Of a stretch of DNA of 53,470 bases, positions 30,339 to 44,683 are shown piece by piece. The stretch's first letter is position 1. Each line of letters starts with the position of its first letter. Source of the DNA: Enterovirga sp. (GTDB lineage Bacteria > Pseudomonadota > Alphaproteobacteria > Rhizobiales > Beijerinckiaceae). The stretch lies in contig NZ_JAQGKF010000220.1 in assembly GCF_028290205.1 (NCBI RefSeq), positions 1-53,470 of the forward strand, in the 5' to 3' direction. Position numbers and translations under genes: made by a program. The notes beneath the pieces are model-generated. The model did no database searches, had not been told where the DNA came from, and worked only from the letters and a program-made list of their open reading frames with translations.

Positions 30339-31078
30339 CGCGGCTTCTCGGCCGCCGCCAGGTAGTTCACGGCGATGTCGTCCGAGAGCCGCCACAGGTT
30401 GCGGAGCGGATCAAAGACCATGCCGCGGGTGCGAAACCCCGTGAGCCCGGCCTCCCGCACGGAGAGGCGCAGCTCGTCCGGCCGAATGAAGCGCTCCCAG
30501 TCATGCGTGCCCCTGGGCAGCCAGCCGAGCACGTATTCCGCGCCCACGATGGCGAGCGCGAAGCTCCGCAAGGTGCGGTTCAGCGTGGCCAGCAGCAGGA
30601 GCCCGCCCGGCCGCAGCGCCTGGGCACAGGAGGCCACGAACCGGGCCGGATCGGCCACGTGCTCCAGCACCTCCATGCTGACCACGAGGTCGAATCGCTC
30701 GCCCCGCGCGACGGCCGCCTCCACGGTCTCGGCCCGGTAGTCGATCGCGAGGCCGGCCCCCTCCGCGTGCCGGCGGGCGGCCGCGATCGTGGCTTCGGCC
30801 GGATCGAGCGCCGTCACGGCGCCGCCGAGCCTGGCCAGTGGCTCCGACAGGAGGCCGGCACCGCAGCCAGCGTCCAGCACGTCGAGGCCTTCGAGGGGAA
30901 ACGGCGTCTTGGGGTCGCGCTCGAAATGAGCGCAGCATTGGTCGCGCAGCCACTGGAGCCGCACCGGGTTGATGCGGTGCAGGGGCTTCATCGGCCCCTC
31001 CGGATCCCACCAGTCGCGCGCGATGCGGTCGAACTTGTCGACCTCGGCCGCCACCACGGAGGGCTGCGCCGCCGTCAC
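30335..31078 (-). CDS. ubiG: UbiG, 3-demethylubiquinone/2-polyprenyl-6-hydroxyphenol O-methyltransferase
   Basis: A 247-residue SAM-dependent methyltransferase that performs both O-methylations of ubiquinone synthesis. The conserved UbiG N-terminus AAEVDKFDRIARDWWDPEG with MKPLHRINPVRL is followed by the SAM motif LDVLDAGCGAGLLSEPLA (about 66-83), VVSMEVLEHVADPARFV and ATLNRTLRSFALAIVGAEY. I place the start at a GTG at 31078: no in-frame ATG lies between the divergent lysC gene and residue 30, and the length then matches the family. The 193 bp to lysC hold the divergent promoters. The ribosome binding site at this GTG is weak. Confidence 0.92.
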   Translation of the reverse strand: MTAAQPSVVAAEVDKFDRIARDWWDPEGPMKPLHRINPVRLQWLRDQCCAHFERDPKTPFPLEGLDVLDAGCGAGLLSEPLARLGGAVTALDPAEATIAAARRHAEGAGLAIDYRAETVEAAVARGERFDLVVSMEVLEHVADPARFVASCAQALRPGGLLLLATLNRTLRSFALAIVGAEYVLGWLPRGTHDWERFIRPDELRLSVREAGLTGFRTRGMVFDPLRNLWRLSDDIAVNYLAAAEKPR

Positions 31079-31271
31079 GATGGAGAGCCCGGCAGGCTGG
31101 GAGACGGGCCGGGAGCCCGGCCCGGCCTTGCCCAGGAAGGAGGTGCGGCCGGAGCCCGGCCGGGTCCGCCATGACGCCGATGCGTTGACATGGCCGAAGC
31201 ATACGCGATACCGCCCGGCCGATCGACACTCCCCGCCGATTCCCCGACAGCTCAGACCTCCCCGCCCGTCG

Positions 31272-32513
31272 ATGCCCCGTCTTGTCATGAAGTTCGGCGG
31301 CACGTCGGTCGCCAATGTGGACCGGATCCGCAACGTCGCCCGCCACGTGGCCCGCGAGGTGCGGGCCGGCTACGACGTCGCCGTCGTGGTCTCGGCCATG
31401 TCCGGCAAGACCAACGAGCTCGTGGGCTGGGTGCGCGACGCGAACCCGCTCTACGACCCGGCCGAATACGACACGGTCGTGGCCTCGGGCGAGCAGGTCA
31501 CCTCGGGCCTTCTCGCCATCGCGCTGCAGAAGGACGGCATTCCGGCCCGCTCCTGGCAGGGCTGGCAGGTGCCGATCCACACGTCCGACCAGCACGGCTC
31601 CGCCCGCATCGCGGCGATCGATGGCGCCGCCATTCTGGCCCGCTTCGAGGCGGCCCGGGAGGTTGCCGTGGTGTCGGGCTTTCAGGGCGTTCACCCCGAG
31701 ACCGGCCGCATCACGACCCTCGGCCGGGGCGGATCCGACACCAGCGCGGTGGCCCTAGCTGCAGCCCTCGGGGCGGAGCGCTGCGACATCTACACGGACG
31801 TCGACGGGGTCTACACGACCGATCCCCGGGTGGTGCCGCGCGCGCGGCGGCTCGACCGGGTGGCCTTCGAGGAGATGCTCGAAATGGCATCCCTCGGCGC
31901 CAAGGTGCTGCAGGTGCGCTCTGTCGAGCTCGCCATGGTGCACCGGGTGCCGACCTATGTGCGGTCGTCCTTCGACGACCCCGACCACCCCAAGCCCGGC
32001 ACGCTCATCTGCGACGAGGAGGACATCATGGAGAACCCCGTCGTCACCGGCATCGCCTTTTCGCGCGACGAGGCCCAGATCACGCTGCGGCGGGTGGCCG
32101 ACAAGCCGGGCGTCGCGGCTGCCATCTTCGGTCCGCTCGCGGACGCGAACGTCAATGTCGACATGATCATCCAGGTTGTGTCCGACGACGCGGCCACCAC
32201 CGACATCACCTTCACCGTGCCGTCGGCCGATTACGAGCGCTCCCGGGCCCTGCTCGAGGAGAACAAGGACCGAATCGGCGCCGCCGTGATCCAGGGTGCA
32301 ACGGACGTCGTGAAGGTGTCGGCCATCGGCGTCGGCATGCGGTCCCATGCCGGCGTCGCGTCCCGGGCCTTCAAGGCCTTGGCCGAGAAGGGGATCAACA
32401 TCCGGGCGATCACAACTTCTGAGATCAAGTTCTCGGTCCTGATCGACGCCGCATATACCGAGCTTGCGGTGCGAACGCTCCACTCGCTATACGGCCTCGA
32501 CGACAAGGCCTGA
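31272..32513 (+). CDS. lysC: Aspartate kinase (monofunctional LysC)
   Basis: A 413-residue aspartokinase, the first step of Lys, Met, Thr, Ile and diaminopimelate synthesis. The kinase domain begins MPRLVMKFGGTSVANVDRIR with catalytic K7. It includes VVSAMSGKTNELV, TTLGRGGSDTSAVALAAALG and CDIYTDVDGVYTTDPR. Tandem ACT domains (about 265-413) include DKPGVAAAIFGPLADANVNV and SHAGVASRAFKALAEKGINI with ITTSEIKFSVLID, the feedback sites for Lys/Thr. It begins the lysC-ptsP-prfA run, which is a Hyphomicrobiales arrangement. Start ATG at 31272; divergent from ubiG. Confidence 0.97.
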   Translation: MPRLVMKFGGTSVANVDRIRNVARHVAREVRAGYDVAVVVSAMSGKTNELVGWVRDANPLYDPAEYDTVVASGEQVTSGLLAIALQKDGIPARSWQGWQVPIHTSDQHGSARIAAIDGAAILARFEAAREVAVVSGFQGVHPETGRITTLGRGGSDTSAVALAAALGAERCDIYTDVDGVYTTDPRVVPRARRLDRVAFEEMLEMASLGAKVLQVRSVELAMVHRVPTYVRSSFDDPDHPKPGTLICDEEDIMENPVVTGIAFSRDEAQITLRRVADKPGVAAAIFGPLADANVNVDMIIQVVSDDAATTDITFTVPSADYERSRALLEENKDRIGAAVIQGATDVVKVSAIGVGMRSHAGVASRAFKALAEKGINIRAITTSEIKFSVLIDAAYTELAVRTLHSLYGLDDKA

Positions 32514-32581
32514 GCCCACCAGGGCGGACGGGCTCGCCGCCGCGCTCTCCGGCCCGCGGCCTCCTCGTCACGGGAAGATCG

Positions 32582-34855
32582 ATGCCAGGTGCTCCGGGAG
32601 GTCCGCGCGTGCTCCTGCGCCGCCTCCGCGAAGTCATGGCGGAGCCGGTGGCAGCACAGGCGCGTCTTGACCGCATCGTGATGCTGATCGCCGCCAACAT
32701 GGTGTCGGAGGTCTGCTCGCTTTACGTGATGCGGTCTGACGAGGCGCTGGAGCTCTACGCCACCGAAGGGCTCAACCGTGAGGCGGTCCACCAGACCAAG
32801 CTCCGGTCGGGCGAAGGCCTGGTCGGCCTGATCGCCCGCAGCGCGGAGCCGCTGGCGCTCTCGGACGCGCAATCCCACTCGGCCTTCGCCTACCGGCCGG
32901 AGACGGGCGAGGAGGTCTATCACGGCTTCCTCGGCGTGCCGGTTCTCAGGGCGGGCAACACGCTCGGCGTCCTGGTGGTTCAGAACGCCGCCCATCGCCA
33001 CTACACCGAGGAGGAGGTCGAGGCCCTCCAGACCACCTCCATGGTGCTGGCCGAGATGATCGCCTCGGGCGAGTTGCGCTCGCTCGGCGAGCCCGGCACC
33101 GAAACGGCGGCCCGCCGGCCGCTCCAGTTCCGTGGCGTCCCGCTCGCCGACGGGCTCGGGCTCGGCCATGTGGTGCTGCACGAGCCGCGCGTGGTGGTGA
33201 AAAACCTCATCGCGTCCGACATCGACCACGAGATCGCCCGGCTCAACGCCGCCATTGCGGATGTGCGCTCCTCCATCGACGAGATGCTGGAACGCGGCGA
33301 CATCGCCCATCAGGGCGACCACCGGGACGTGCTCGAGACGTTCCGCATGTTTGCCAACGACCAGGGCTGGCTGCGCCGCCTGGGAGACGCGGTCCGGACC
33401 GGCATCACGGCGGAAGCCGCGGTGGAGCGGGTGCAGTCGGACAGCCGCGCCCGCATGATGCGGTCGACCGACCCGTATTTCCGCGAACGGCTGCACGATC
33501 TGGACGACCTGGCCAACCGCCTGCTCCGCCGGCTGGTCGGACGCGACCTGATCGCCTCGCACGACGCGCTGCCCGAGAACGCGATCCTGGTCGCCCGGAT
33601 GATGGGGCCGGCGGCGCTGCTCGATTACGACCGCTCGCGCCTGCGAGGCCTCGTGCTCGAGGAGGGCGGCGAGACGAGCCACATCGCCATCGTGGCCCGG
33701 GCGCTCGCCATTCCGGTCGTCAGTGCGGTCGAGAATGCCAGCTCGGTCGTGGAGACGGGCGACGCCATCATCGTGGACGGCGACACCGGCGACGTGCAGA
33801 TCCGGCCGCCGCCGGATGTCGAGGCCTCCTACGCCGGCAAGGCGCGCCTGCGGGCCCGCCGGCAGGAGCAGTACCGCCGTCTGCGCCACCTCCCTTCGGT
33901 CACCCGCGACGGGGTCGAGATCGTGCTGCAGCTCAATGCCGGGCTGCTGGTCGACCTGCCGCACATGGCCGAGACGGGCGCGGCCGGGATCGGCCTGTTC
34001 CGGACCGAGCTGCAATTCATGATCGCCGAGCGCATGCCCTCGGCCAAGGATCAGCAGCGTCTCTATGCCGACGTCCTGACGGCGGTCGGCGACCGGCCGG
34101 TGACCTTCCGATCGCTCGACATCGGCGGCGACAAGCTGCTGCCCTACATGCCGCGCGTCGACGAGGAGAATCCGGCGATCGGCTGGCGCGCCATCCGGAT
34201 CGCGCTCGACCGGCCGGCCCTGCTGCGCATTCAGGCTCGCGCGCTGCTGAAGGCCACGGCGGGCCGCGAGCTGCGGCTGATGTTCCCGATGGTCGCCACC
34301 CGGACCGAGTTCGAGCGCGCCCGGAGCCTGGTCGAAGGCGAGATCGAGTACCTGCGCCGGACCGGCCACCCGCTGCCGTCGCAGATCTCGCTCGGCGCCA
34401 TGGTGGAGGTGCCTTCGCTCTTGTTCGACCTCGACGGCATCGCCCGGTCCGCCGACTTCCTGTCGATCGGCTCGAATGACCTCATGCAGTTCCTGTTCGC
34501 GGCCGATCGTGACAACCGGCTTGTGTCCGGCCGCTTCGACGCGCTGAGCTTGCCGTCGCTGCGCGCGCTAAGGCTGATCGCGGACGAGGCCGGCAAGGTG
34601 GGCTGCCCGGTTACGGTGTGCGGCGAGCTCGCCGGCCGGCCGCTCGAAGCCATGGCGCTCATCGGCCTCGGCTATCGCCGGCTGTCGATGTCGGCGGCCG
34701 CGATCGGCCCCGTGAAGGCGATGCTGCTGGCGCTCGAAGCCTACCCGCTCGAGGCCCTCCTGGCCGAGGCCTTGGCGACGGGCGGGGATCCGGCCGGCGA
34801 AAGCCTGCGGCCGGCCCTCGCGCGCTTCGCTGCCGACCATGCGATTCCGGTCTGA
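32582..34855 (+). CDS. ptsP: PtsP, phosphoenolpyruvate-protein phosphotransferase of the nitrogen PTS (EI-Ntr)
   Basis: A 757-residue enzyme that transfers phosphate from PEP to NPr (PtsO) at the head of the PTS-Ntr regulatory chain. A GAF domain (about 25-165) contains [20 protein letters not shown] and [10 protein letters not shown]. It is followed by the EI N-terminal domain, the swivelling His domain with H367 in [17 protein letters not shown], and the C-terminal PEP-binding barrel with [52 protein letters not shown] and [12 protein letters not shown]. The GAF domain senses glutamine and related signals in homologs. Its TGA overlaps the prfA ATG (TGATG). Confidence 0.97.
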
Positions 34856-35937
34856 TGCCCGCACCGCCGGCCCATAAGCTCGACGCCATCCTGGCGCGGC
34901 ACGCCATCGTGACCGCGACCCTGAACGGGGCGCCGGACCCGGACAGCTTCGTGGCCCTGTCGCGCGAGCTCGCCGAGCTCGACCCCGTGGTGCAGGCCGT
35001 CCGGTCGTACCGGATCGCCCTGGACGAGGTCGTCGGCATCGATGCGATCATCGAGGAGGCCGGGCTCGCCCCCGAGATGCGGGCCATGGCCGAGGAGGAG
35101 CGGCCCGCCGCGGTCGCGGCCGCCGAGGAGGCCGCCGCCGCCCTCAACCTGCTGCTCCTGCCCAAGGATGCCGCCGACGAGCGCAGCGCTATCCTGGAGG
35201 TCAGGGCCGGAACCGGCGGCGACGAGGCGGCCCTCTTCGCCGGCGACCTGTTCCGGATGTATGCCCGCTATGCCGAGCTGAAGGGCTGGCGTGTCGAGGT
35301 GCTGAGCGAAAGCGAGGGCACGGCGGGCGGCCTCCGGGAGGTCGTGGCCGAGATCAAGGGCCGCGGCGTGTTCGCCCGGCTTCGCTTCGAATCGGGCGTA
35401 CATCGCGTGCAGCGGGTGCCGAGCACGGAGGCGCAGGGCCGCATTCACACCTCCGCGGCCACCGTCGCGGTGCTGCCGGAAGCCGAGGAGGTCGACGTCG
35501 CGATCAACGAGGCGGATCTCAAGATCGACACGCTGCGGGCCCAGGGCGCCGGCGGGCAGCACGTCAACAAGACCGAATCGGCCGTGCGCATCACCCACCT
35601 GCCGTCCGGCATCGTGGTGTTCGTCCAGGACGAGCGCTCGCAGCACAAGAACCGGGCCCGGGCCATGAACCTGCTGCGCTCGCGCATCTACGACCAGGAG
35701 CGGTCCCGCAAGGACGCCGTCCGGGCCGCGGACCGCAAGTCGCAGGTCGGCTCAGGCGACCGCTCGGAGCGGATCCGGACCTACAACTTCCCGCAAGGTC
35801 GGGTCACGGACCACCGCATCAACCTGACCCTCTACCGGCTGGAGGAGGTCATGGCCGGCACAGCCCTCGACGAGGTGGTCGATGCGCTCACGCGCGAACA
35901 CCGGGCCGCTTTGCTGGCCGCCGAGGGCCTGAGCTAG
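34855..35937 (+). CDS. prfA: Peptide chain release factor 1
   Basis: A 360-residue RF1 that terminates translation at UAA and UAG. The tripeptide anticodon of RF1 (PxT) is PST at 189-191 within [23 protein letters not shown] or PVT is more common, and PST is a permitted variant. The catalytic GGQ is at 233-235 ([20 protein letters not shown]), with Q235 the normal PrmC methylation target. The N-terminal coiled coil is of usual length. Its start overlaps the ptsP stop by one base. The usual downstream gene prmC is missing here; a convergent metallopeptidase gene overlaps the last 4 bases instead. Confidence 0.98.
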
Positions 35938-37016
35938 GGGCTGCCCTCTGCAGGCCGTCGCCGCCGCACCAGCCGGTGGATGAAGCCGAGCTTCTCGATC
36001 ACCACCGGCGTCAGCACGAACGGGTAGAGGTCGTGCTGCCCCATGCAGCGGTTGACCGAGTTCAGCGCAAAGGCGAGCGGGATCCAGCGATCTACGAGGC
36101 CGCGGATGTCGGGCACGTCGTAGACCTCCACGTCCGCCGTGGCCGCCAGACTGTCCGCGCCCTCGATGCGGGGTGCCACGCTCATGCCGAAGGCGCGGGC
36201 CATCTCGAGCGAATCGACGATGTGCAGGTAATGCGCCCAGGTCTCCGCAAAGTCCTCCCAGGGGTGGGTCGTGGCATAGGCCGACACGAAGCTGTTCCGC
36301 CAGTCGGCCGGCGGGCCCTCCCGGTAGTGGCGGTTCAGCGCCTGCCCGTAATCCTGCCGATCGTCCCCGAACACCTCCCGGCATTCGGCCAGCGCGCCGC
36401 CGTCCCGCACCAGCACGTCCCAGTAGAGATGGCCGACCTCGTGCCGGAAATGGCCGAGCAGCGTGCGGTAGGGTTCGCCCATGGCCGCCCGGCGTCGCTC
36501 ACGCTCGGCATCGTCCGCCTCAGCCAGGGCGATCGTGATGAGGCCGTCGTCGTGGCCCGTCATCACCTTGGGCCCGTCCGGAAGCGGCGCGTCGGCCAGG
36601 AAGTCGAAGGTCAGCGGCTCGCGGCTCTCGCCAAAGGCCGGCCGGGGCAGGTCCAACCGGAGCAGGCCGTAGAAGAGCCGGTGCTTGGCCGCCTCGATCC
36701 TCCGCCACGCGGCTTCCGCGCCGGGCTGGCTCAGGTTCGGCACCGTCCGGTTGTGCCGGCAGGCAAGGCAGAACCCGGCCGAGCTGTCAGCCGGAATGAG
36801 CCAGTTGCACACGTCGTGCTCGGCATTGGCGCAGAACCGGTACTGCCCGCCGATCTCGGCCCGCGCCTGCCAGACCCCCTGCCGCTCGGGGATTGGCTCC
36901 AGTGCCGACAGCACGTCCGCCTCCGGCACATAGCCGAGCCGGCGGCCGCAATTCTCGCAGCGGGTATTCTCGAAATGGAGAAGTTGCCCGCAGCACGGGC
37001 ATTTGAACAGCTTCAT
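35934..37016 (-). CDS. Zinc-ribbon protein with putative zinc-binding metallopeptidase domain
   Basis: A 360-residue cytoplasmic protein of the family with an N-terminal zinc ribbon and a predicted metallopeptidase domain. Zinc-ribbon cysteines are C6/C9 (FKCPCCGQ) and C20/C23 (RCENCGRR). A second Cys set lies at 62, 70, 83 and 86 ([20 protein letters not shown]). The peptidase motif HEVGH is at 192-196 ([16 protein letters not shown]). Further acidic and His residues are in [20 protein letters not shown]. Such proteins are widespread in Proteobacteria; substrate and role are unknown. It is convergent with prfA (4-bp overlap) and divergent from the hydrolase gene. ATG at 37016. Confidence 0.85.
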
Positions 37017-37125
37017 CGGGGAACGAACCGCTCTGTCGCAGTCGCCCGGACAATGGAGGCTGCGGACCATTGTTCCCGGCCGGCCTCACCGTATGTGTGA
37101 CGGATCGGGGGGGTCGTCGTCGCCT

Positions 37126-37947
37126 ATGCGCATCCTTGCCGGCGTCGTCGTCGTAGTGGCGCTGCTCTACGTCCTGCTGGTCGCGCTGCTCTATGTGGGC
37201 CAGCGCCGGCTGCTATTTCCGGCCGGTGGCGTGCGGGCAAGCGCGGCCGAGGCCGGCCTCGCCCCGGCCATCTCGGACCTCGTGCTTCGGACAGAGGACG
37301 GCGAGCACCTGGTGGCCTGGTGGAAGCCGCCGGAGCCCGGCCGGGCGCTGCTGATCTACTTCCACGGCAATGGCGGCTCGCTCTGGAACCGGCGCGAGCG
37401 GGCCCGGGCGCTCACGGCCGACGGGCGCGGTCTCCTTCTGGTGAGCTACCGCGGCTATTCGGGCTCCACCGGCACGCCGAGCGAAGCCGGATTGCGGCGC
37501 GACGCGGAGGCGGCCTACCGCTTCGTGGCCGGCTATGAGCCGCGCCGCATCGTTCTCTACGGCGAGTCCCTCGGCACCGGCGTCGCGGTCTGGCTCGCCG
37601 CCCATCGCCGGGTCGGAGGGGTGATCCTGGACGCGCCGTTCACGTCCATCGCCGACGTGGCGCAGCCGCTGTTCCGCATCATCCCGGTCGGGCTGCTCCT
37701 GCGCGACGAGTTCCGGTCGCTGGATCGGATCAGCGAGATCGGGGCGCCGCTGCTGGTGATGCACGGAGAGCGCGACGGCGTGATCCCGATCGCGCTGGCG
37801 GAAAGGCTGTTTGCCGCCGCCCGGGAGCCAAAGGTATTTCTCCGGCTGCCGGACAGCGACCATGTCAGCGTGCTGGAGGGTGGCGGGCTCGGGGCCGTCC
37901 GCACGCTCCTGGATGACGTCGAAGCCCGCCTGCCGGCCCCGCCCTGA
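37126..37947 (+). CDS. Membrane-anchored alpha/beta hydrolase
   Basis: A 273-residue serine hydrolase with an N-terminal membrane anchor (ILAGVVVVVALLYVLLVALL, residues 3-22). Its catalytic domain resembles the BEM46/ABHD-type family. The nucleophile elbow is LYGESLGTG with S148. The acid is D217 in HGERDGVIP and the base is H246 in LPDSDHVSVLEGG. The oxyanion region is LIYFHGNGGS (77-86). Activity could be esterase, thioesterase or lipase-like and is not determined. ATG at 37126 starts just before the anchor; an upstream ATG at 37093 is possible. It is convergent with the six-cysteine gene (16-bp gap). Confidence 0.87.
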   Translation: MRILAGVVVVVALLYVLLVALLYVGQRRLLFPAGGVRASAAEAGLAPAISDLVLRTEDGEHLVAWWKPPEPGRALLIYFHGNGGSLWNRRERARALTADGRGLLLVSYRGYSGSTGTPSEAGLRRDAEAAYRFVAGYEPRRIVLYGESLGTGVAVWLAAHRRVGGVILDAPFTSIADVAQPLFRIIPVGLLLRDEFRSLDRISEIGAPLLVMHGERDGVIPIALAERLFAAAREPKVFLRLPDSDHVSVLEGGGLGAVRTLLDDVEARLPAPP

Positions 37948-37963
37948 AGGCCGGCGCGGCGCC

Positions 37964-38248
37964 TCAGCAGCGGTCGCGGCAGAGCTGCCCGGCGGCGTGG
38001 GCGGCCGCGATGCAGATCGGAATTGCGGGCCCGGACAGGGCCGCGCAGGCGGCCACCGCAGCGGCTTCCGCGATGCTGCAGGCCGCCGTGCAGAACGGGT
38101 TGGCCGCGATGGCTTCGGTGGCTCTCGCGCCCTCGACCGGCACGAACGTGTGCTGCGCCTTGAAGAAGCTGTCCGTGATGTCCTGGATCTTCTTGCGGTC
38201 GGCGTCGCTGATCCCGGACCACTCGGTTGAGTTCACCTCGATGTTCAT
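37964..38248 (-). CDS. Small six-cysteine protein A (paralog of 38418-38720)
   Basis: A 94-residue protein of no family I recognise. The N-terminal 40 residues are polar and leader-like (MNIEVNSTEWSGISDADRKK and onward, with W10 and R18). The C-terminal half is hydrophobic and Ala-rich with six Cys at 53, 57, 68, 79, 90 and 94, spaced x3-x10-x10-x10-x3, ending on the last Cys. This palindromic spacing with a SGP turn at 72-74 would let two helices pack as a hairpin with stacked pairs 53-94, 57-90 and 68-79 (inference). There is no signal peptide. GGGAGG lies before the ATG at 38248. It is divergent from its paralog. Confidence 0.75.
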   Translation of the reverse strand: MNIEVNSTEWSGISDADRKKIQDITDSFFKAQHTFVPVEGARATEAIAANPFCTAACSIAEAAAVAACAALSGPAIPICIAAAHAAGQLCRDRC

Positions 38249-38304
38249 GTCACGGCCTCCCGAAGCCCTCCCGGGCGGCGCCATTCAGGCAGCAGACAGG
38301 CCTA

Positions 38305-38332
38305 AACACAACCTCTAGTTTTGTTATGTGTT
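38305..38332. promoter_or_regulatory. AT-rich dyad in the promoter region between the two six-cysteine genes
   Basis: AACACA (38305-38310) and TGTGTT (38327-38332) are inverted arms around a 16-base AT-rich spacer, in an otherwise GC-rich 169-bp divergent region. TTGACG at 38331-38336 could be a -35 element for the plus-strand gene. It is a candidate shared operator or promoter. Confidence 0.35.
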
Positions 38333-38417
38333 GACGGCACGCAGCCGCTGTGGCCAGTTTTGCCCTGCCGCTGGCCGACCCGGCCGGGGTCGGTGAGACC
38401 GGCAGGGAGGACCAGCC

Positions 38418-38720
38418 ATGGATATCGTGGTTCCGCGGGAGCACTGGGACAGCCTGACGGAGGACCAGCGGCAGGAGGTGACGACGACGCTGCAGGCGAG
38501 CGGCGCCCTGCAGCGAGGGGACCGCATCGTGGCCGGGGACGTGGAATTACAGTTCGCCCCCGAGGCACAGATCATGGCGGACGGGCCGTGCCAGGCGGCC
38601 TGCACGGCGGCCTATGGCCGGGCGACTCGCCTTTGCACCCTGCTGCCGCACCCGGCCGCGAAGGCGGCCTGCTATGCGGGCGCGATGGCCGTCTACGCGG
38701 TCTGCTTGAGAAACTGCTGA
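38418..38720 (+). CDS. Small six-cysteine protein B (paralog of 37964-38248)
   Basis: A 100-residue protein that aligns without gaps to protein A over residues 1-21. Both have M-x-I-x-V, W10, a Ser/Thr-Asp/Glu run and R18. The N-terminal part (MDIVVPREHWDSLTEDQRQE and onward) is acidic and helical. The C-terminal part carries six Cys at 58, 62, 73, 85, 96 and 100, spaced x3-x10-x11-x10-x3, again ending in Cys, with a Pro-containing turn (LLPHPAA) in the middle. No signal peptide and no modification enzymes are nearby. GGGAGG lies before the ATG at 38418. Possible roles are a bacteriocin or RiPP-like precursor, a disulfide-rich secreted peptide, or a metal binder. Confidence 0.75.
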   Translation: MDIVVPREHWDSLTEDQRQEVTTTLQASGALQRGDRIVAGDVELQFAPEAQIMADGPCQAACTAAYGRATRLCTLLPHPAAKAACYAGAMAVYAVCLRNC

Positions 38721-38781
38721 CCCGTTACGGGCCGCGTTCGGGCCCGGGCCTCACCCGGTTCCGAAACAGGTCACGTGGCCC

Positions 38782-38802
38782 GCTCAGCCGACCCGGCTGA
38801 GC
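38782..38802. terminator. 8-bp hairpin between the six-cysteine gene and the convergent TPR gene
   Basis: GCTCAGCC, loop GACCC, GGCTGAGC: a perfect 8-bp stem overlapping the last codons of the TPR gene and lying 61 bases after the stop of the six-cysteine gene. There is no T-tract on either side; it could be a shared 3' end structure. Confidence 0.35.
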
Positions 38803-39626
38803 CCGGCCCTGGCGGTGGCGTTGCCGCTCTCGATGCCGGTCGCCCGCTGGTAGCTCTCGGCGGCGTCCTGCCGGCGGCCCATCTTCTCGAAGGCGAGGCC
38901 TCGCTGAGCCCAGGATTCAGCGTCGCGGTTGTTGATGTTGAGCGCGGCGTTGAAATCCTCGACCGCCTTGTCGAACTGCCCAAGCGCGATCAGGCTCTGC
39001 CCGCGCCCGGCATAGGGCGCCGCCACATAGGCGTTGCGGTCGATGGCGGCGTCGAAGTCGATCACGGCTTCGCGGTGGCGGCCCATGCGCTGGTAGACGA
39101 GGCCGCGGGCATGAAGCGCTTCGGCCGATTCCGGCGTCAGCCGGATCGCCTGCGTCAGATCCGAGAGGGCGGCGTCGAAATTCGACTGCACGCGGTAGAG
39201 ATTGGCGCGGCCGACAAAGGCCGGGCCGTAATTGCCATCAGCCTGGATGGCGCGCGAGAAGTCGGCCAGCGCGGCATCGTTTCGGTTCGTCTGCCGGTAG
39301 GCCAGCGCCCGATTGGTGTAGGCCGGGGCGTTGTTGGGATCGATCTGGATCGCCTTGGTGAAGTCGGCGATCGCGTCCGTGTAGCGCCCGGCCCTGGCAT
39401 AGGCCGCGCCACGGGTGTTGTAGGCCGAGGGCTCGTTCGGGTTGCGGCTGATGACGTCGGTCAGCGACTCGATGTTGACCGAGGTCGAGCCGGTCTTGTC
39501 CTCGCCCTCGAGCACGGCCACGCCCGGGCCGGGCCCGGCGACCCGGCCGGCCGTGTCGCACCCCGCGAGGCCGATCCCCAGGACCAGCGCCACCAAGGCG
39601 GCCTTACGGCCTTCCGCAACCCCCAT
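38784..39626 (-). CDS. TPR-repeat lipoprotein
   Basis: A 280-residue lipoprotein. The signal peptide ends in a lipobox (LGIGLAGC, lipidated Cys23). About six tetratricopeptide repeats follow (residues 55-275), each of about 34 residues. Examples are AYNTRGAAYARAGRYTDAIA, AYTNRALAYRQTNRNDAALA and SWAQRGLAFEKMGRRQDAAE. The fold resembles NlpI and other TPR lipoproteins that act as protein-binding scaffolds in the envelope, often linked to peptidoglycan hydrolases. The specific partner is unknown. ATG at 39626 begins the signal peptide; longer readings from 39758 run into the region upstream with no family support. Confidence 0.9.
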   Translation of the reverse strand: MGVAEGRKAALVALVLGIGLAGCDTAGRVAGPGPGVAVLEGEDKTGSTSVNIESLTDVISRNPNEPSAYNTRGAAYARAGRYTDAIADFTKAIQIDPNNAPAYTNRALAYRQTNRNDAALADFSRAIQADGNYGPAFVGRANLYRVQSNFDAALSDLTQAIRLTPESAEALHARGLVYQRMGRHREAVIDFDAAIDRNAYVAAPYAGRGQSLIALGQFDKAVEDFNAALNINNRDAESWAQRGLAFEKMGRRQDAAESYQRATGIESGNATARAGLSRVG

Positions 39627-39717
39627 CAAACCTGCTCCCGTGCTGCCCCGACCGGCGCCGGAAGGTGGGGGTGCGTTGTTACCAAAGGCTGAAGAGGCCA
39701 GCCCAAACCCTGCGACA

Positions 39718-40008
39718 TCAAGTCGGAGCGACTGCCGGCGCAGCCGGTTGGGCGCCACCGCGGCCGGGCCCGCCGAGACGCGGCACAGGCTTCGGCTTTG
39801 CCGGCAGCAGGCCTTCCCGCTGCATGCGCTTGCGGATCAGCTTGCGGGCGCGGCGGACGGCCTCGCCCTTTTCCCGCGCCCTCTTCTCGGATGGCTTCTC
39901 GTAATGTCCGCGCAGCTTCATCTCTCGGAAGACGCCCTCGCGCTGGAGCTTCTTCTTGAGGGCGCGCAGCGCCTGATCGACGTTGTTGTCCCGAACGAGA
40001 ACCTGCAC
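39718..40008 (-). CDS. rpsU: 30S ribosomal protein S21
   Basis: A 96-residue S21, a small basic protein of the 30S platform near the 3' end of 16S rRNA. The family sequence starts [20 protein letters not shown], continues [20 protein letters not shown] and ends with a Lys/Arg-rich tail. It is longer than E. coli S21 (71 residues) because of a Pro/Ala-rich C-terminal extension, as is common in Hyphomicrobiales. The start is a GTG at 40008 with AGAGAG upstream. The 230-bp gap to the plus-strand membrane gene holds no tRNA or other gene that I can see. Confidence 0.96.
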
Positions 40009-40238
40009 GCGTCGTCTCTCTGTCGCCTCGAATGCTGAGTTCAGCGCCTGAATGTGGAAGTGGTCACGGGCGCCGCACCGGGAGCACCTTGGAACCAATC
40101 CCGTCGTTACCAGATTGGGGGACACCTGTCCACGGCCGGACCCGTCCTGCGCCGCCCGGGTTGACCTTCGACCAAAGTCGTAGATGATCGGGGTCGGGAG
40201 ACACCTGGGGGCACGTTCACGTCAGAGCGGGACAGGCC

Positions 40239-40817
40239 ATGGTCAATGCCGACGAGTTCAGCCGCTCGCTGCGCGGCCTCTCAGATTTGCTGAATCGCCG
40301 GGCGGAGGGCCTGGCGCAGTTCGAGCTCAGCCTCCCGGCCTTCTGGCGCTCCTTCGCGGCCGTCCTGCTGACCGCACCGGCCTATGTGGTCGAGCTCGCC
40401 CTCGTGCGCCGAAACGTCGAAGGGGCGGCGGTCGGGCTGTTCGACGATCCCGGGCTGGCGCTGCTGGTCGGGGCCGGCCACGTGCTGGCCTTTCTGGCCC
40501 TCCCGGTCGCGATGATCTTCGTGGCGCGGCGGCTTGGGCTCGGGCACCGCTACGTGCCCTTCGTGATCGTCACGAACTGGCTGCAGGTCTTTGCATCCCT
40601 GGCCCTGGCCGTGCCGGGCGCCTTGCTGGTGCTGGGCTGGGAGACACCGGCACTGACGGCCCTGTTCACCCTCGCCTTCACGACCATTGTGCTGCACGTG
40701 CAATGGTTTGCGACCCGGGTGACGCTGCAGGTCGGCGCGCTCGCGGCGGCGCTGGTGACCGCGCTCGGGCTGGCGCTGTCGGTCGGCTCGACCGCCCTGG
40801 TCCAGGCGCTCGCCTGA
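40239..40817 (+). CDS. Multi-pass membrane protein, unknown function
   Basis: A 192-residue inner-membrane protein with about five hydrophobic helices: FWRSFAAVLLTAPAYVVELA, LALLVGAGHVLAFLALPVAM, FVIVTNWLQVFASLALAVPG, ALTALFTLAFTTIVLHVQWF and VGALAAALVTALGLALSVGS. The first 30 residues are soluble and charged. The pattern resembles YIP1-like or DUF-type membrane proteins common in alphaproteobacteria, but I cannot assign a function. It is convergent with truA (13-bp gap). ATG at 40239 follows a GGGACAGG region. Confidence 0.75.
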   Translation: MVNADEFSRSLRGLSDLLNRRAEGLAQFELSLPAFWRSFAAVLLTAPAYVVELALVRRNVEGAAVGLFDDPGLALLVGAGHVLAFLALPVAMIFVARRLGLGHRYVPFVIVTNWLQVFASLALAVPGALLVLGWETPALTALFTLAFTTIVLHVQWFATRVTLQVGALAAALVTALGLALSVGSTALVQALA

Positions 40818-40830
40818 ACCCGAAAACCCG

Positions 40831-41571
40831 TCAGGGGTAGTCGACGCCGACCAGGGCCAGCCCTGCCGCCGGCGCGAGCGGGCCGCAGCGGGCGCGGTCG
40901 CGCGCCTCCAGCGCCTCCCGGACCTCCATGACGCGCCAGCGGCCGGAGCCCGCCTGGACCAGCGTTCCGACGAGGGACCGGACCTGGCTGTGCAGAAAGG
41001 ATCGGGCCGCGGCGTCGATCCGGATCTCGTCCCCGTGCCGGGCGACGTCGAGCTGCTCGAGGGTTCGGACAGGGCTGTCGGCCTGGCACTCGGCGGCCCG
41101 GAAGGTGGTGAAGTCGTGCCGCCCGACCAGGAGCTGCGCCGCCTCGTGCATCGCGCCCGCGTCGAGCAGCCAGGGCAGGTGCCAAACCCGATTGCGATCG
41201 AGGGCCGGCGGGGCGCGCCGGGTGAGGATGCGGTAAAGGTAGCGGCGCCGAATGGCCGAGAAGCGGGCGTGAAACGTCTCGGGCGCGATCTCGGCCGACA
41301 CCACGGCCACGGGCAGCGGCCTCAGATGGGCATTGGCCGCATCCCGGACCGTGTCCGGCCGCAGCGGCTTGGCGATGTCGACGTGAACCACCTGCCCGCT
41401 GGCGTGCACGCCCGCATCGGTGCGGCCGGCGCAGTGCACCCGCACGGTCTCGCCGGCGAAAGCCGCAATGGCGGTCTCCAGCGCCTCCTGGACAGAGGGG
41501 CCGTTGCGCTGGTGCTGCCAGCCCGAAAACCCCGTGCCGTCATATTCGACGACCAGCCGGTAGCGGGCCAT
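40831..41571 (-). CDS. truA: tRNA pseudouridine(38-40) synthase TruA
   Basis: A 246-residue enzyme that isomerises uridines 38-40 in the tRNA anticodon arm. N-terminal [20 protein letters not shown] and the catalytic loop [17 protein letters not shown] with D52 are diagnostic. [16 protein letters not shown] and [20 protein letters not shown] are the further family blocks. It is last in the def-fmt-truA operon; its ATG at 41571 shares one base with the fmt stop (TGATG). Length fits the family. Confidence 0.97.
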
Positions 41572-42500
41572 CAGAGGAGCGCGTCGCCGGGACGCAGGCG
41601 GGTTCCGCGCCAAAACGCCTCGGCGTCCACCGGCCCCCGGCCGGCCCGCTGCAGCCGCAGAGGCCGGACCGCCTCGTCCCCGCACGCGACGGCCATGCCG
41701 TCCAGCAGCGTCCCCGGCGCGCCATTGCCGGGGACCCGCTCGGTCTGAAGCAGCTTCACCCGCTCCGGCCCGCCCCCGAGATCGGCCTCGAAGAAGGCGC
41801 CGGGCCAGGGCGCGAGCCCGCGCACGTGGTCGTGGATGCGGGCCGCCGGCCAGGTCCAGTCGAGCCGGGCTTCCTCGTTGGTGATCTTGCTGGCGTAGAC
41901 CACGCCCTCGGCGGGCTGGGCTGCGAAGGGGAGCCCGCCCGTTTCCAGCCGCTCGAGGGCCTCGACGGCGAGCCGCGCGCCGAGCCGGCTCAGCTCGTCG
42001 TGCAGTTCGCCGGTGGTCGTGTCGGGTCCGATCGGCAGCCGCGCCTCCAGCGCGACCGGACCGGTGTCCAGCCCCGCCTCCATCTGCATCACGCCGATGC
42101 CGGTCTCCCGGTCGCCGGCCATGACGGCGCGGTGAATGGGCGCGGCCCCGCGCCAGCGCGGCAGCAGCGAGGCATGGAGGTTGAGGCAGCCGTGCCGTGG
42201 CACGGCCAGGATGGTGGGCGGCAGGAGCAGGCCATAGGCGACCACCACGGCGACGTCGGGGGCGAGCGCCTGCAGCCGGGCCACTTCCTCGGGAGCGCGC
42301 AAAGTCGGGGGCGTGTGAACCGGGAGCGAGCGGGCGAGCGCGGCGGCATGGACGGGGCTCGGCCGTTCGCGCAGGCCGCGGCCCGAGGCTGTCGGGGCCT
42401 TGGTGAAGACGGCCACGACGTCATGGCCGGCAGCCGCGATCGCCTCCAGCGTGGGGACGGCGAAAGCCGGAGTCCCCATGAAGACGACCCGCAAGGTCAT
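41571..42500 (-). CDS. fmt: Methionyl-tRNA formyltransferase
   Basis: A 309-residue enzyme that formylates initiator Met-tRNA using 10-formyl-THF. The N-terminal Rossmann part starts [20 protein letters not shown]. The catalytic region is [20 protein letters not shown], with the Asn/His and SLLP signature. [20 protein letters not shown] and the C-terminal OB domain ([20 protein letters not shown]) follow. Its ATG (42500-42498) overlaps the def stop (ATGA), so the two steps of the formyl-methionine cycle are translationally coupled. Confidence 0.97.
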
Positions 42501-43018
42501 GCGTCCTCGGCTTCGCGCCGTGCCGCCTTCTCGAACTTCTTGATGGCCCGCGAACGTTTCAGACGCGACAGGTGGTCGATGAACATGACCCCGTTGAGGT
42601 GGTCGATCTCGTGCTGGATGCACGTCGCCAGGATGCCGTCGGCCTCCTGCTCCACAGACTCGCCCTCGAGCGTGCGGTAGCGGTAGCGGATGCGGTCCGG
42701 GCGCTCCACCTCTTCGTAATATTCCGGGATCGACAGGCAGCCTTCCTCATGCACCCGACGCTCCTCCGAGCTCCAGGTGATCTCAGGATCCACGAGGACC
42801 ACCGGACAACGCTCCTCGTCCTTCTTGGCGAGGTCGATCACCACCAGCCGCTTCGCGATCCCGATCTGGATGGCCGCGAGCCCGATGCCGGGCGCGTCAT
42901 ACATGGTGTCGAGCATGTCGGCCGCGAGCGCGCGGGTCTCCGCCGTCACGGGCCCGACAGGCTCGGATACCAGCCGGAGCCTCGGATCCGGGAGCTTCAC
43001 GAGGGTCCTGATCGCCAT
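42497..43018 (-). CDS. def: Peptide deformylase
   Basis: A 173-residue Fe(II)/Zn hydrolase that removes the N-formyl group from nascent proteins. The three family motifs are GIGLAAIQIG (44-53, GxGxAAxQ), EGCLS (92-96, metal ligand C94) and QHEIDHLNG (135-143, HExxH ligands H136 and H140, catalytic E137). It is first in the def-fmt-truA operon. ATG at 43018 is chosen because earlier in-frame codons lack family sequence. The 126-bp gap to oprB holds an opposing regulated promoter. Confidence 0.97.
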   Translation of the reverse strand: MAIRTLVKLPDPRLRLVSEPVGPVTAETRALAADMLDTMYDAPGIGLAAIQIGIAKRLVVIDLAKKDEERCPVVLVDPEITWSSEERRVHEEGCLSIPEYYEEVERPDRIRYRYRTLEGESVEQEADGILATCIQHEIDHLNGVMFIDHLSRLKRSRAIKKFEKAARREAEDA

Positions 43019-43093
43019 GCCGGGGCAGATAGGATGCGGCCGCCGGAGGGTCAATCAAGGGCCGGCAACGCTGAAGCTATGCAGTTCAGCCTG

Positions 43094-43121
43094 TTGACGG
43101 GATCATAGCACGTGCTATAGT
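43094..43121 (+). promoter_or_regulatory. Promoter of the porin-sitABCD operon with MntR-like box
   Basis: TTGACG (-35, 43094-43099), a 16-bp spacer and TATAGT (-10, 43116-43121) make a good sigma-70-type promoter 23 bases before the oprB start. The spacer and -10 are covered by ATAGCACGTGCTAT (43105-43118), a perfect 14-bp palindrome. Its ATAGC-N4-GCTAT core is that of the E. coli MntR box. A Mn-loaded repressor bound here would block RNA polymerase. Confidence 0.72.
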
Positions 43122-43144
43122 CAGCGGAACGGAAATGATCGCCC

Positions 43145-44683
43145 ATGCTCGGAGAGCTGCCCCCTAGGCTCGGTCTCGGTGCTGCCGGCCCGGTTAAAAC
43201 CCGGCCTGGGCGGGGCCGTTGCCGGGTGCGCGGGCCCCTGGCCGGGGCCACGTTCCTGCTGCTCGCCGGCCCCGTCGCAGCCCAGACGCTGGGCCAGGCC
43301 GGCAATCGCGCCGATCCCGGACCGGCCGATCTCCCCGCCCAGGCCGCCAGCACCGGCCAGCCGGCCGAGCCGGACAGTCAGGGCTCGATCTCGACATCGC
43401 TGCCGGCCGCTCTCGCCGATCCGGCCGGCCTGCGGAGCACGCTGAAGGCCGCCGGCATCACCTCCCGGCTGATCTATATCGGCGAGGGGTTCGGCCTCGC
43501 GCGGGGCGGCATCCGCCGCGGCGGCAGCTACCAGGGCCGCCTGGAGTGGCAGCTCGACGCCGATCTCGACACGCTCGCCGGCCTGTCCGGCCTGGCCCTT
43601 CACGGCAACCTGTACCAGATCCACGGCCACGGCCTATCGGGCTGCTGCCTGGGCAATCTCTTGACGACCAGCAGCATCGACGCCCTTCCGGCCACGCGCC
43701 TGTCCGAGCTCTGGGCCGAGCAGAAGCTCTTCGACGACAAGGTCGCGATCCGGGCCGGGCAGCTCGCCGCCGATGCCGAGTTCCTGGTCAGCGACTATGC
43801 CGGCCTGTTCGTGAACGCGACCTTCGGCTGGCCCGGCATCGCGGCCGCCAACCTGCCGAATGGCGGCCCCGCCTACCCGACCGCGACACCCGGCATCCGG
43901 CTCAAGCTCGCACCGGCCGATCAGGTCGCCGTGATGGCGGCCGTGTTCAACGGCGATCCGGTCGGGCCCGGCGGCCAGAGCCCGCCGCAGCGCCGGGACC
44001 GGTCGGGCTTCGAGTTCCGGACGTCGGATGCGGCGCTGCTGATGGGCGAGGTCGCCTACGGCTACGGGCAGGCGGGAGCGGAGCCGCGGCTGCCCGGCAC
44101 CGTGAAGCTCGGCGGCTGGCACCATCTCGGCCGCTTCGGCGACCAGCGCACCGGCACCGACGGGCTGTCGCTCGCCGATCCGAATTCCGGCGGCATCGCC
44201 CGCCGGCTCTCCGGCAATTCGGGCGTCTACGGCGTCGTCGACCAGCTCCTCTACCGTGTCCCCGGCACGGCCGATGGCGGGGTCGGGATGTTTGTCCGGG
44301 CCTCCGCCTCGCCGGGCGACCGCAACCTCGTGTCCGCCTATCTGGACGGCGGCATCACCTTCAAGGGCCTGCTGCCGGGCCGCCCGGCCGACACGTTCGG
44401 CGTCGCGGCCGGCTATGCGGCGATCTCGCCTCAGGCCCGCGGGCTGGACCGCGACGCCCAGCTCTTCGGGGCGGCAGCCGGCGCGCCGTTCGGCCCCCGG
44501 CGCAGCCGCGAGGCCGTGATCGAGGCCACCTACCAGGCCCAGATCGTGCCGGGCTTCACCATCCAGCCCGATGTCCAACACGTGATCCGGCCCGGCGGCA
44601 ACGTCGCCAACCGGCGCGATCCGAACGGGGCTCCGGTCCGCAACGCCACGGTCCTGGGGCTCCGGGCGTCCCTGCGCTACTGA
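43145..44683 (+). CDS. OprB-type (carbohydrate-selective) outer membrane porin
   Basis: A 512-residue outer-membrane beta-barrel protein. The signal peptide has a long basic n-region (residues 1-30) and hydrophobic [13 protein letters not shown], cut near AQ. OprB-family blocks are [58 protein letters not shown] and [12 protein letters not shown]. It ends in the barrel's terminal aromatic (SLRY). The family name implies sugars, but here it heads the sitABCD Mn/Fe operon under an MntR-like box, 2 bases from sitA. It is therefore probably the outer-membrane entry for Mn(II), a role MnoP plays in Bradyrhizobium (inference). The ribosome binding site is weak. Confidence 0.85.

What the first reader, a model, noticed from the sequence alone, without database searches (positions are those of the whole stretch)
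37964..38720. Divergent pair of paralogous six-cysteine small proteins with a near-palindromic Cys pattern
Two short proteins (94 and 100 aa), encoded back to back, align gap-free over their first 21 residues (shared I3, V5, W10 and R18 and an acidic/polar run). Both end in C-x3-C-x10-C-x10/11-C-x10-C-x3-C with the final Cys as last residue. The spacing is mirror-symmetric about a Pro-containing turn, which suggests an antiparallel helical hairpin held by three stacked disulfides, or two CX3C metal sites. The conserved leader-like N-terminus with a hydrophobic Cys-rich C-terminal part recalls peptide precursors. There is no signal peptide and no known maturation gene nearby. I know no family with this description.
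Basis: partly seen in the sequence, partly recalled or inferred. Interest (0 to 1): 0.78.

Follow-up and report, generated by a model that had tools for sequence, protein, structure and literature searches.

The report
Six-cysteine hairpin peptide precursor pair
Two back-to-back bacterial genes make small proteins with a detachable-looking front part and a tail predicted to fold into a two-helix clip held by three cysteine pairs; they belong to a rare, unnamed family that probably makes processed peptides.

Summary
Two real genes (94 and 100 aa) face apart at 37964-38720, and both end in C-x3-C-x10-C-xn-C-x10-C-x3-C. No Pfam, NCBIfam or PHROGs model matches at its cut-off. I found six relatives (three Methylobacterium species, a Paracoccus plasmid, two other alphaproteobacteria) and one match by the Cys module alone (G1341). 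Eight intact sequences keep 3-10-n-10-3 exactly; only the loop varies (7, 9, 10, 11). AlphaFold2 predicts a helical hairpin for both window proteins, from thin alignments. The N-terminal part is usually acidic and Cys-free; the core is neutral to basic. In G1341 the module carries another leader and lies behind a PatA/PatG-family maturation protease, between two other six-Cys ORFs. An inverted repeat (AACYTNRRGTT, one mismatch) lies between the window genes and occurs twice, 30 bases apart, before each Methylobacterium copy; 14 peptide-free sister loci have no exact match. Best reading: leader plus core precursor of a disulfide-clipped helical hairpin, alpha-hairpinin-like or RiPP-like. Cleavage, export and activity are inferred. 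No PatA/PatG protease was found near seven of eight loci, and no other maturation gene was recognised among the neighbours scanned, so a cytosolic metal-thiolate protein remains a serious rival.

The parts
37964..38248 (-). pepM: 94-aa precursor-like protein (start ATG at 38248, stop codon at 37966-37964)
   Evidence: relatives
38093..38248 (-). pepM N-terminal part (residues 1-52, no Cys, charge -3; predicted beta-alpha-alpha-beta)
37967..38092 (-). pepM six-Cys core (residues 53-94), Cys 53,57,68,79,90,94; helices predicted at 51-70 and 75-92
38418..38720 (+). pepP: 100-aa precursor-like protein
38418..38588 (+). pepP N-terminal part (residues 1-57, no Cys, charge -7)
38589..38717 (+). pepP six-Cys core (residues 58-100), Cys 58,62,73,85,96,100; helices predicted at 57-73 and 79-98
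38310..38320 (.). AACCTCTAGTT, operator-like inverted repeat between the divergent genes; the only match with at most one mismatch to AACYTNRRGTT in the 53-kb window
38256..38261 (-). ribosome-binding site (GGGAGG) of pepM
   Evidence: read from the sequence
38405..38410 (+). ribosome-binding site (GGGAGG) of pepP
   Evidence: read from the sequence
37102..37947 (+). alpha/beta hydrolase (hydrophobic N-terminus by eye). A similar hydrolase is the direct neighbour of the peptide gene in Methylobacterium G609 and G630 and lies 2.4 kb away in Leaf112. Association uncertain

Best explanation
Each gene encodes a precursor: an acidic N-terminal part without Cys (52 and 57 aa, predicted as a small beta-alpha-alpha-beta unit) followed by a 42-43-aa core. 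The core folds into an antiparallel two-helix hairpin in which Cys1-Cys6, Cys2-Cys5 and Cys3-Cys4 sit at equal levels and can form three stacked disulfides once the peptide leaves the reducing cytosol. The N-terminal part acts as leader (recognition, keeping the core inactive) and is removed by a protease encoded elsewhere in the genome, or by a PatA/PatG-type protease beside the gene as in genome G1341. The released clip is most likely an antagonistic or signalling peptide, as its rare, patchy, partly plasmid-borne and partly decayed distribution suggests. The two window genes carry two distant family members on one divergent promoter region with a shared operator-like repeat. Shown: genes, spacing, relatives, the repeat, the PatA/PatG neighbour in one genome. 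Predicted: hairpin fold. Inferred: disulfides, cleavage, export, activity, joint regulation.
For: Eight intact sequences keep 3-10-n-10-3 exactly while n is 7, 9, 10 or 11, so only the hairpin loop varies. AF2 places helices on the Cys segments of both window proteins (10-residue blocks from residue 61 on: pLDDT 81-85 for pepP; from residue 51 on: 79-89 for pepM). The only row shown under 2 A for the pepP model is the plant six-Cys alpha-hairpinin Nigellin-1.1 (38 of 38 residues, rmsd 1.9, Z 3.5). The N-terminal part has no Cys in 7 of 8 and net charge -3 to -10 in 7 of 8; the core has charge 0 to +4 and positive GRAVY in 8 of 8. In G1341 the module has a different, shorter N-terminal part and is the second of three six-Cys ORFs directly behind a TIGR03895 PatA/PatG-family protease (442.6 bits, cut-off 421.05); all three ORFs start M-x-[LM]-P and have AGGAG-like ribosome-binding sites. 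Three cyanobacterial loci whose proteases also pass TIGR03895 have a small Cys-rich ORF with an M-x-[IL]-P start behind the protease. The Paracoccus copy is on a mobilizable plasmid, directly after another small Cys protein. Decayed copies: Leaf112 (stop at Cys1, no selB over cut-off) and P. aeruginosa plasmids. Repeat at peptide loci.
Against: No protease, transporter, modifying or immunity gene was recognised near the window pair (Pfam of ten genes in 30969-44680: housekeeping or none), and no PatA/PatG homologue in the window or near the six other loci. Only 1 of 8 loci has the protease. G1341 was found through the Cys part only, at E = 3.5e-4 for one genome in a search of 397, so about 0.14 such hits are expected by chance, before counting the exact spacing; GC by codon position of its ORF (0.67/0.67/0.60) is not coding-like, and a GC-based gene caller preferred an antisense ORF there. 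The N-terminal part is predicted folded, unusual for a classical leader, and no cleavage motif such as double glycine is conserved. No signal peptide is apparent by eye. The AF2 models rest on three sequences (one read through a stop); the other four models scored 53-61 (pepP) and 64-72 (pepM). Foldseek gave no match at E <= 0.001.
Confidence: 0.5

Rival explanations
1. A cytosolic metal-thiolate mini-protein: the reduced Cys of the hairpin bind Zn, Cu(I) or an Fe-S cluster (a twin CX3C site at the open end plus a third Cys pair near the turn), and the N-terminal part is a folded docking domain. It would store or sense metal.
For: No signal peptide by eye; no PatA/PatG homologue near seven of eight loci and no transporter or maturation enzyme recognised among the neighbours scanned. 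The N-terminal part is predicted folded. The copper-storage protein Csp3 appears among non-significant fold matches of the pepM model (E about 4).
Against: Patchy presence (3 of 111 species of one genus; 0 of 8 others in the window's genus), plasmid location and decay are unusual for metal homeostasis. One copy sits in a protease plus Cys-peptide row with another leader.
Confidence: 0.25
2. The toxin half of a selfish or toxin-antitoxin-like pair, or a small regulator acting inside the cell, with the divergent partner or a distant gene as antidote.
For: Divergent pair with a shared operator-like repeat; small size; plasmid copy; decayed copies.
Against: No divergent second copy was found at the other loci (one profile match per genome); the two window genes are homologous, unlike a toxin and its antitoxin; best PADLOC match E 0.014.
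Confidence: 0.1
3. A bacterial counterpart of the helical-hairpin proteins with paired Cys motifs (small Tim or CHCH type), working as a structural protein of an oxidising compartment.
For: The pattern combines a twin CX3C with a twin CX10C on antiparallel helices.
Against: No such Pfam match; no targeting signal seen by eye; rare, and no gene is linked to it at all loci.
Confidence: 0.05

Closest known systems
Plant alpha-hairpinins, especially the six-Cys type (Nigellin-1.1, PDB 2NB2; passages of PMC11591084 seen)
   Same: Two antiparallel helices clipped by Cys pairs from twin CX3C motifs; the predicted pepP hairpin aligns over all 38 residues of 2NB2 at 1.9 A.
   Different: The published motifs are CX3C-X4-20-CX3C or CX3CX3C-X4-20-CX3CX3C; here CX3CX10C-X7-11-CX10CX3C. 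Bacterial, no apparent secretion signal, no sequence similarity shown.
Loci with PatA/PatG-family cyanobactin maturation proteases (NCBIfam TIGR03895)
   Same: The G1341 module lies behind such a protease, as small Cys-rich ORFs do at three of four cyanobacterial plasmid loci examined.
   Different: No such protease was found near the window and six other loci; their N-terminal part is unlike the M-x-[LIM]-P starts; other cyanobactin genes were not searched for at G1341 and none was recognised by eye.
Glycocins with three disulfides (thermoglycocin and orniglycocin, PMC12457901; abstract and passages seen)
   Same: Leader plus short bacterial core with a loop between two helices and nested disulfides.
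   Different: In thermoglycocin the third disulfide makes a C-terminal loop, and a glycosyltransferase and a peptidase-containing transporter are encoded in the cluster. Neither was seen among the neighbours scanned here.
CHCH/twin-CX9C and small Tim (twin CX3C) proteins of mitochondria (recalled)
   Same: Helical hairpin with paired Cys at matching levels.
   Different: Different spacing, no sequence match, bacterial.

Membership tests
Alpha-hairpinins | CX3C-X4-20-CX3C or CX3CX3C-X4-20-CX3CX3C motif (PMC11591084, passage from its Table 1) | tested here: not met
   All eight intact sequences read CX3CX10C-X7-11-CX10CX3C.
Alpha-hairpinins | helix-loop-helix with disulfides | tested here: inconclusive
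   Helix-loop-helix predicted, Z 3.5 to 2NB2; disulfides not testable.
PatA/PatG-processed (cyanobactin-like) precursors | PatA/PatG-family protease beside the precursor | tested here: not met
   For the window pair: no homologue in the 53 kb by tblastn at E <= 1. Met for the G1341 module only.
PatA/PatG-processed (cyanobactin-like) precursors | M-x-[LIM]-P start as seen behind TIGR03895 genes (pattern noted here, not from print) | tested here: not met
   Window proteins start MNIEVN and MDIVVP; G1341 starts MQLPYL.
RiPP precursors in general | leader removed and core modified after translation | not testable with these tools
   Needs mass spectrometry.
RiPP precursors in general | modifying or maturation enzyme encoded nearby | tested here: not met
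   For the window: Pfam of ten genes in 30969-44680 plus the two next neighbours shows none. The rest of the window was not scanned by family.
Glycocins | glycosyltransferase and peptidase-containing transporter in the cluster | tested here: not met
   None among the scanned neighbours of the window and of L073/L044; not every gene was scanned.
Selenoproteins (for the Leaf112 TGA) | SelB encoded in the genome | tested here: not met
   G113 best match 185.8 bits over positions 2-267 only, cut-off 242.25; G609 passes at 246.7.
CHCH / small Tim proteins | match to their Pfam families | tested here: not met
   No such Pfam hit up to E 10 for five family members.

The most novel reading that the evidence does not exclude
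A new class of bacterial peptide: a portable three-disulfide helical-hairpin core (CX3CX10C-Xn-CX10CX3C) that evolution has attached to at least two unrelated leaders, one of them served by PatA/PatG-type proteases. It would be a bacterial counterpart, by convergence, of plant alpha-hairpinin defence peptides.
Probability: 0.35. Interest if true: 0.78.

Novelty: new variant of a known kind. Interest (0 to 1): 0.6.

Why it matters
If the core is cleaved and oxidised, alphaproteobacteria, including Methylobacterium (often plant-associated; recalled), make a genetically encoded disulfide-clipped hairpin like the plant alpha-hairpinins, with a loop that tolerates length changes. That would give a new antimicrobial or signalling peptide scaffold and a new substrate type for PatA/PatG-like proteases, a family named after cyanobactins. 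If it binds metal instead, it is an unusual minimal six-thiolate protein.

Tried and rejected
Selenocysteine at the Leaf112 TGA: rejected, no selB over the cut-off in that genome. Known family: nothing at a curated cut-off in Pfam, NCBIfam or PHROGs (PHROGs only with the two window proteins; G1537 only against NCBIfam); the best weak Pfam match was E 0.0086, the best PADLOC match E 0.014. Weak local matches that look like TRAP DctP proteins (L065, L066) lie in the N-terminal VNxxxWNxIS stretch and were not counted as relatives. Of the 52 genomes matched at E <= 0.1, the window's own and G113 are true; the other 50 are weak (E 0.002-0.1); loci of 28 of these were held and lack the Cys pattern, 22 were not looked at. 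L065-L069 also lack it. Phages and viral contigs: no relative. Plasmids: Paracoccus and the P. aeruginosa remnants only; two weak partial matches inside oxidoreductase genes (E 0.7) were dropped; G234 and G1341 proteins found nothing. PDB by sequence and fold: no significant match. In one search nine other rows reach Z 3.1-3.7 with rmsd 3.2 A or more, so the Nigellin match is topology only; CHCH and small Tim folds did not stand out there, which does not exclude them. Hydrolase as partner enzyme: weakened, because in Methylobacterium it sits beside thiC without the peptide (4 of 8 peptide-free loci), and in the window's genus hydrolase and TPR gene are neighbours without the pair at four loci (L038, L039, L040, L043). 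Rfam: no match in 35000-42000. Consensus promoters and terminators: none in 37940-38800. Literature: nine searches of the open-licence PMC library (searches returned no paper); no listed title or abstract start describes this family.

Full report
WHAT IS THERE. Two small genes lie back to back at 37964-38248 (minus, 94 aa, here pepM) and 38418-38720 (plus, 100 aa, here pepP), 169 bases apart. Both have a GGGAGG ribosome-binding site (read) and the codon-position GC pattern of real genes (0.59/0.56/0.93 and 0.69/0.53/0.89). The two proteins align without a gap over at least the first 26 columns and share M1, I3, V5, W10 and R18. Both end in C-x3-C-x10-C-x10/11-C-x10-C-x3-C with the last Cys as last residue. 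A looser six-Cys expression run over the window finds only these two places.

RELATIVES. No Pfam, NCBIfam or PHROGs model matches at its cut-off. Profile and protein searches gave these relatives. Three Methylobacterium genomes, G113 (= Methylobacterium sp. Leaf112, named), G609 and G630: 3 of 111 genomes of that genus (the same 3 of 99). A Paracoccus sp. Arc7-R13 plasmid, a 24.5-kb mobilizable record (E 2e-3). G1537 of the same order (E 2.8e-26; 61% identical to the Paracoccus protein). G234 of the same class (E 4.4e-5 before, 2.0e-23 after inclusion in the profile). Also G1341 of the same order, matched through the Cys part only (E 3.5e-4). These E-values are for one genome, so in searches of about 400 genomes a chance hit as good as G1341's is expected about 0.14 times; its exact Cys spacing is what makes me keep it. 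None of the other eight genomes of the window's genus has a copy (several of them are incomplete). Other tallies: 1 of 385 genomes of the class with the first three-row profile (the window's own), 3 of 398 of the phylum (window, G113, G234), 1 of 249 of G234's family (itself), and 9 of 397 of the order at E <= 0.01, of which the window, G113, G1537 and G1341 show the pattern (G113 apart from its stop) and five (L065-L069) do not. One genome-contig scan found one locus, Leaf112; viral contigs and phages none. The family is real, rare and patchy.

THE CORE. In the eight intact sequences (pepM, pepP, G609, G630, Paracoccus, G1537, G234, G1341) the outer spacings 3, 10, 10 and 3 never change, while the middle is 11 in five and 10, 9 and 7 in one each. 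Because the spacing is symmetric, the positions of Cys1+Cys6, Cys2+Cys5 and Cys3+Cys4 add to the same number in every sequence, as expected for pairs at equal level in an antiparallel hairpin. AlphaFold2 predicts helices 57-73 and 79-98 for pepP (mean pLDDT 71.9; 81-85 per block from residue 61, 69 in block 51-60) and 51-70 and 75-92 for pepM (78.1; 79-89 per block from residue 51). Each used three sequences, one of them read through a stop; the other four models of each scored lower (53-61 and 64-72). Fold searches gave nothing at E <= 0.001. Among the chains aligned, the plant six-Cys alpha-hairpinin Nigellin-1.1 matches the hairpin over all its 38 residues at 1.9 A, Z 3.5. That Z is tied with larger, looser matches, so it is a likeness of topology, not of descent.

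THE N-TERMINAL PART. It has no Cys in 7 of 8 (one in G234), is acidic in 7 of 8 (-3 to -10; G1341 0) and hydrophilic. The core is neutral to basic (0 to +4), hydrophobic on average and 26-44% Ala+Gly. That is the usual look of a leader and a core. But AF2 draws the N-terminal part as a small beta-alpha-alpha-beta unit, and no cleavage motif is conserved in the alignments. No signal peptide is apparent by eye; none was computed. pepM groups with the Methylobacterium proteins and pepP with G234 in a small tree; the second grouping involves a very long branch and the first has moderate support (80/84), so I only conclude that the two are distant.

A TELLING CASE. In G1341 a core with the same spacing (loop 9) carries a different, shorter N-terminal part (MQLPYLMPTR...). 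It is the second of three small ORFs in a row directly behind a 633-aa gene that passes the NCBIfam cut-off for the PatA/PatG cyanobactin maturation protease family (TIGR03895, 442.6 bits against 421.05) and has PatG_C and PatG_D domains. Each of the three ORFs has six Cys, an M-x-[LM]-P start and an AGGAG-like ribosome-binding site. Against them, their codon-position GC is not coding-like (for the six-Cys ORF 0.67/0.67/0.60), and my GC-based gene caller chose antisense ORFs there. Of four cyanobacterial plasmid loci whose proteases pass TIGR03895, three (L075, L076, L078) have a small Cys-rich ORF with an M-x-[IL]-P start behind the protease (in L075 at an internal start); at the fourth, L077, a Cys-containing ORF lies upstream on the other strand. 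So the hairpin module occurs as the probable substrate of a maturation protease in one genome, with a swapped leader. This is the best evidence for the precursor reading. It is one case, and descent of that core from the others is not proven.

OTHER CONTEXT. On the Paracoccus plasmid the gene directly follows a second small Cys protein (74 aa, C-x3-C-x10-C-x3-C-G). In Leaf112 the codon of Cys1 is TGA; that genome has no SelB over the cut-off while G609 has one, so the copy is most simply broken. Pseudomonas aeruginosa plasmids (4 records; one examined) carry a remnant with interrupted frames. The window's neighbours scanned are housekeeping or general genes: aspartokinase-like, ptsP-like, prfA-like, a Peptidase_Mx protein, an alpha/beta hydrolase, TPR, ribosomal protein S21, truA-, fmt- and def-like, an OprB porin, and one without a Pfam match. 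No PatA/PatG homologue lies in the window or in the stretches held around the six other loci (L034, L044, L071-L074). In the window's genus hydrolase and TPR gene are neighbours without the pair at four loci (L038-L040, L043), with nothing or other ORFs between them, so the pair was gained here or lost there.

REGULATION. Each Methylobacterium copy, the broken one included, has two inverted repeats of the form AACYTNRRGTT exactly 30 bases apart upstream (five of the six exact, one with one mismatch). In the whole 53-kb window the only match with at most one mismatch is AACCTCTAGTT at 38310, between the two divergent genes. I wrote the consensus from the Methylobacterium copies after having looked at all upstream regions, so this is not a blind test. 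In mononucleotide shuffles of the 169-base intergenic stretch 14 of 1000 had such a site. Of 14 related loci held without the peptide (eight Methylobacterium hydrolase loci, six of the window's genus; 1.7-3.9 kb each) none has an exact match and two have a single one-mismatch match. One-mismatch matches do occur elsewhere: three more in the 20 kb around Leaf112, three around G1537 and four around G1341, one of them at the end of the protease gene. None with at most one mismatch lies before the Paracoccus, G234 or G1537 copies.

HOW IT PROBABLY WORKS. Most likely (0.5): leader plus core precursors of a helical-hairpin peptide clipped by three disulfides, released by a protease encoded elsewhere in most hosts, and used outside the cell for antagonism or signalling. 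The hairpin is predicted; cleavage, export, oxidation and activity are inferred. The main rival (0.25) is a cytosolic metal-thiolate protein, favoured by the lack of any recognised export or maturation gene beside seven of eight loci. The two readings are separated by one intact-mass measurement with and without reductant and metal.

WHAT IT IS NOT SHOWN TO BE. It is not an alpha-hairpinin by the published Cys motifs (PMC11591084, passages seen), not a glycocin by gene content as far as scanned (PMC12457901, abstract and passages seen), and not a cyanobactin-type precursor in the window's own setting. It looks like a hairpin-clip peptide on present evidence; membership of a known family fails on tested features. 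Nine literature searches listed no paper whose title or abstract start describes it.

Noticed in passing
L070:7618-10200 (G1341:C1): A PatA/PatG-family protease (TIGR03895 over cut-off) in an alphaproteobacterium followed by three different six-Cys small ORFs; similar protease plus Cys-rich ORF pairs at cyanobacterial plasmid loci L075, L076, L078. Looks like a little-described peptide system.
   Followed up: partly
L044:1375-1599: 74-aa protein on a Paracoccus plasmid ending C-x3-C-x10-C-x3-C-G, directly upstream of the six-Cys gene; no other match in the plasmid collection.
   Followed up: partly
L034:10001-10285: The Methylobacterium sp. Leaf112 copy has TGA exactly at the first Cys codon; no selB over the cut-off in that genome, so probably a nonsense change.
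   Followed up: yes
L073:6838-8019 and L044:2496-3629: Acyltransferase-3 genes lie within about 2 kb of the peptide gene in Methylobacterium G609 and on the Paracoccus plasmid; may be coincidence.
   Followed up: no
window:35934-37070 minus: Peptidase_Mx zinc-metallopeptidase with zinc ribbon, divergent from the alpha/beta hydrolase; the two are neighbours in five sister genomes too.
   Followed up: no
L045:4940-5300: Remnant of a family member with interrupted frames on Pseudomonas aeruginosa plasmid Rms163; the same stretch matches three other P. aeruginosa plasmids.
   Followed up: partly
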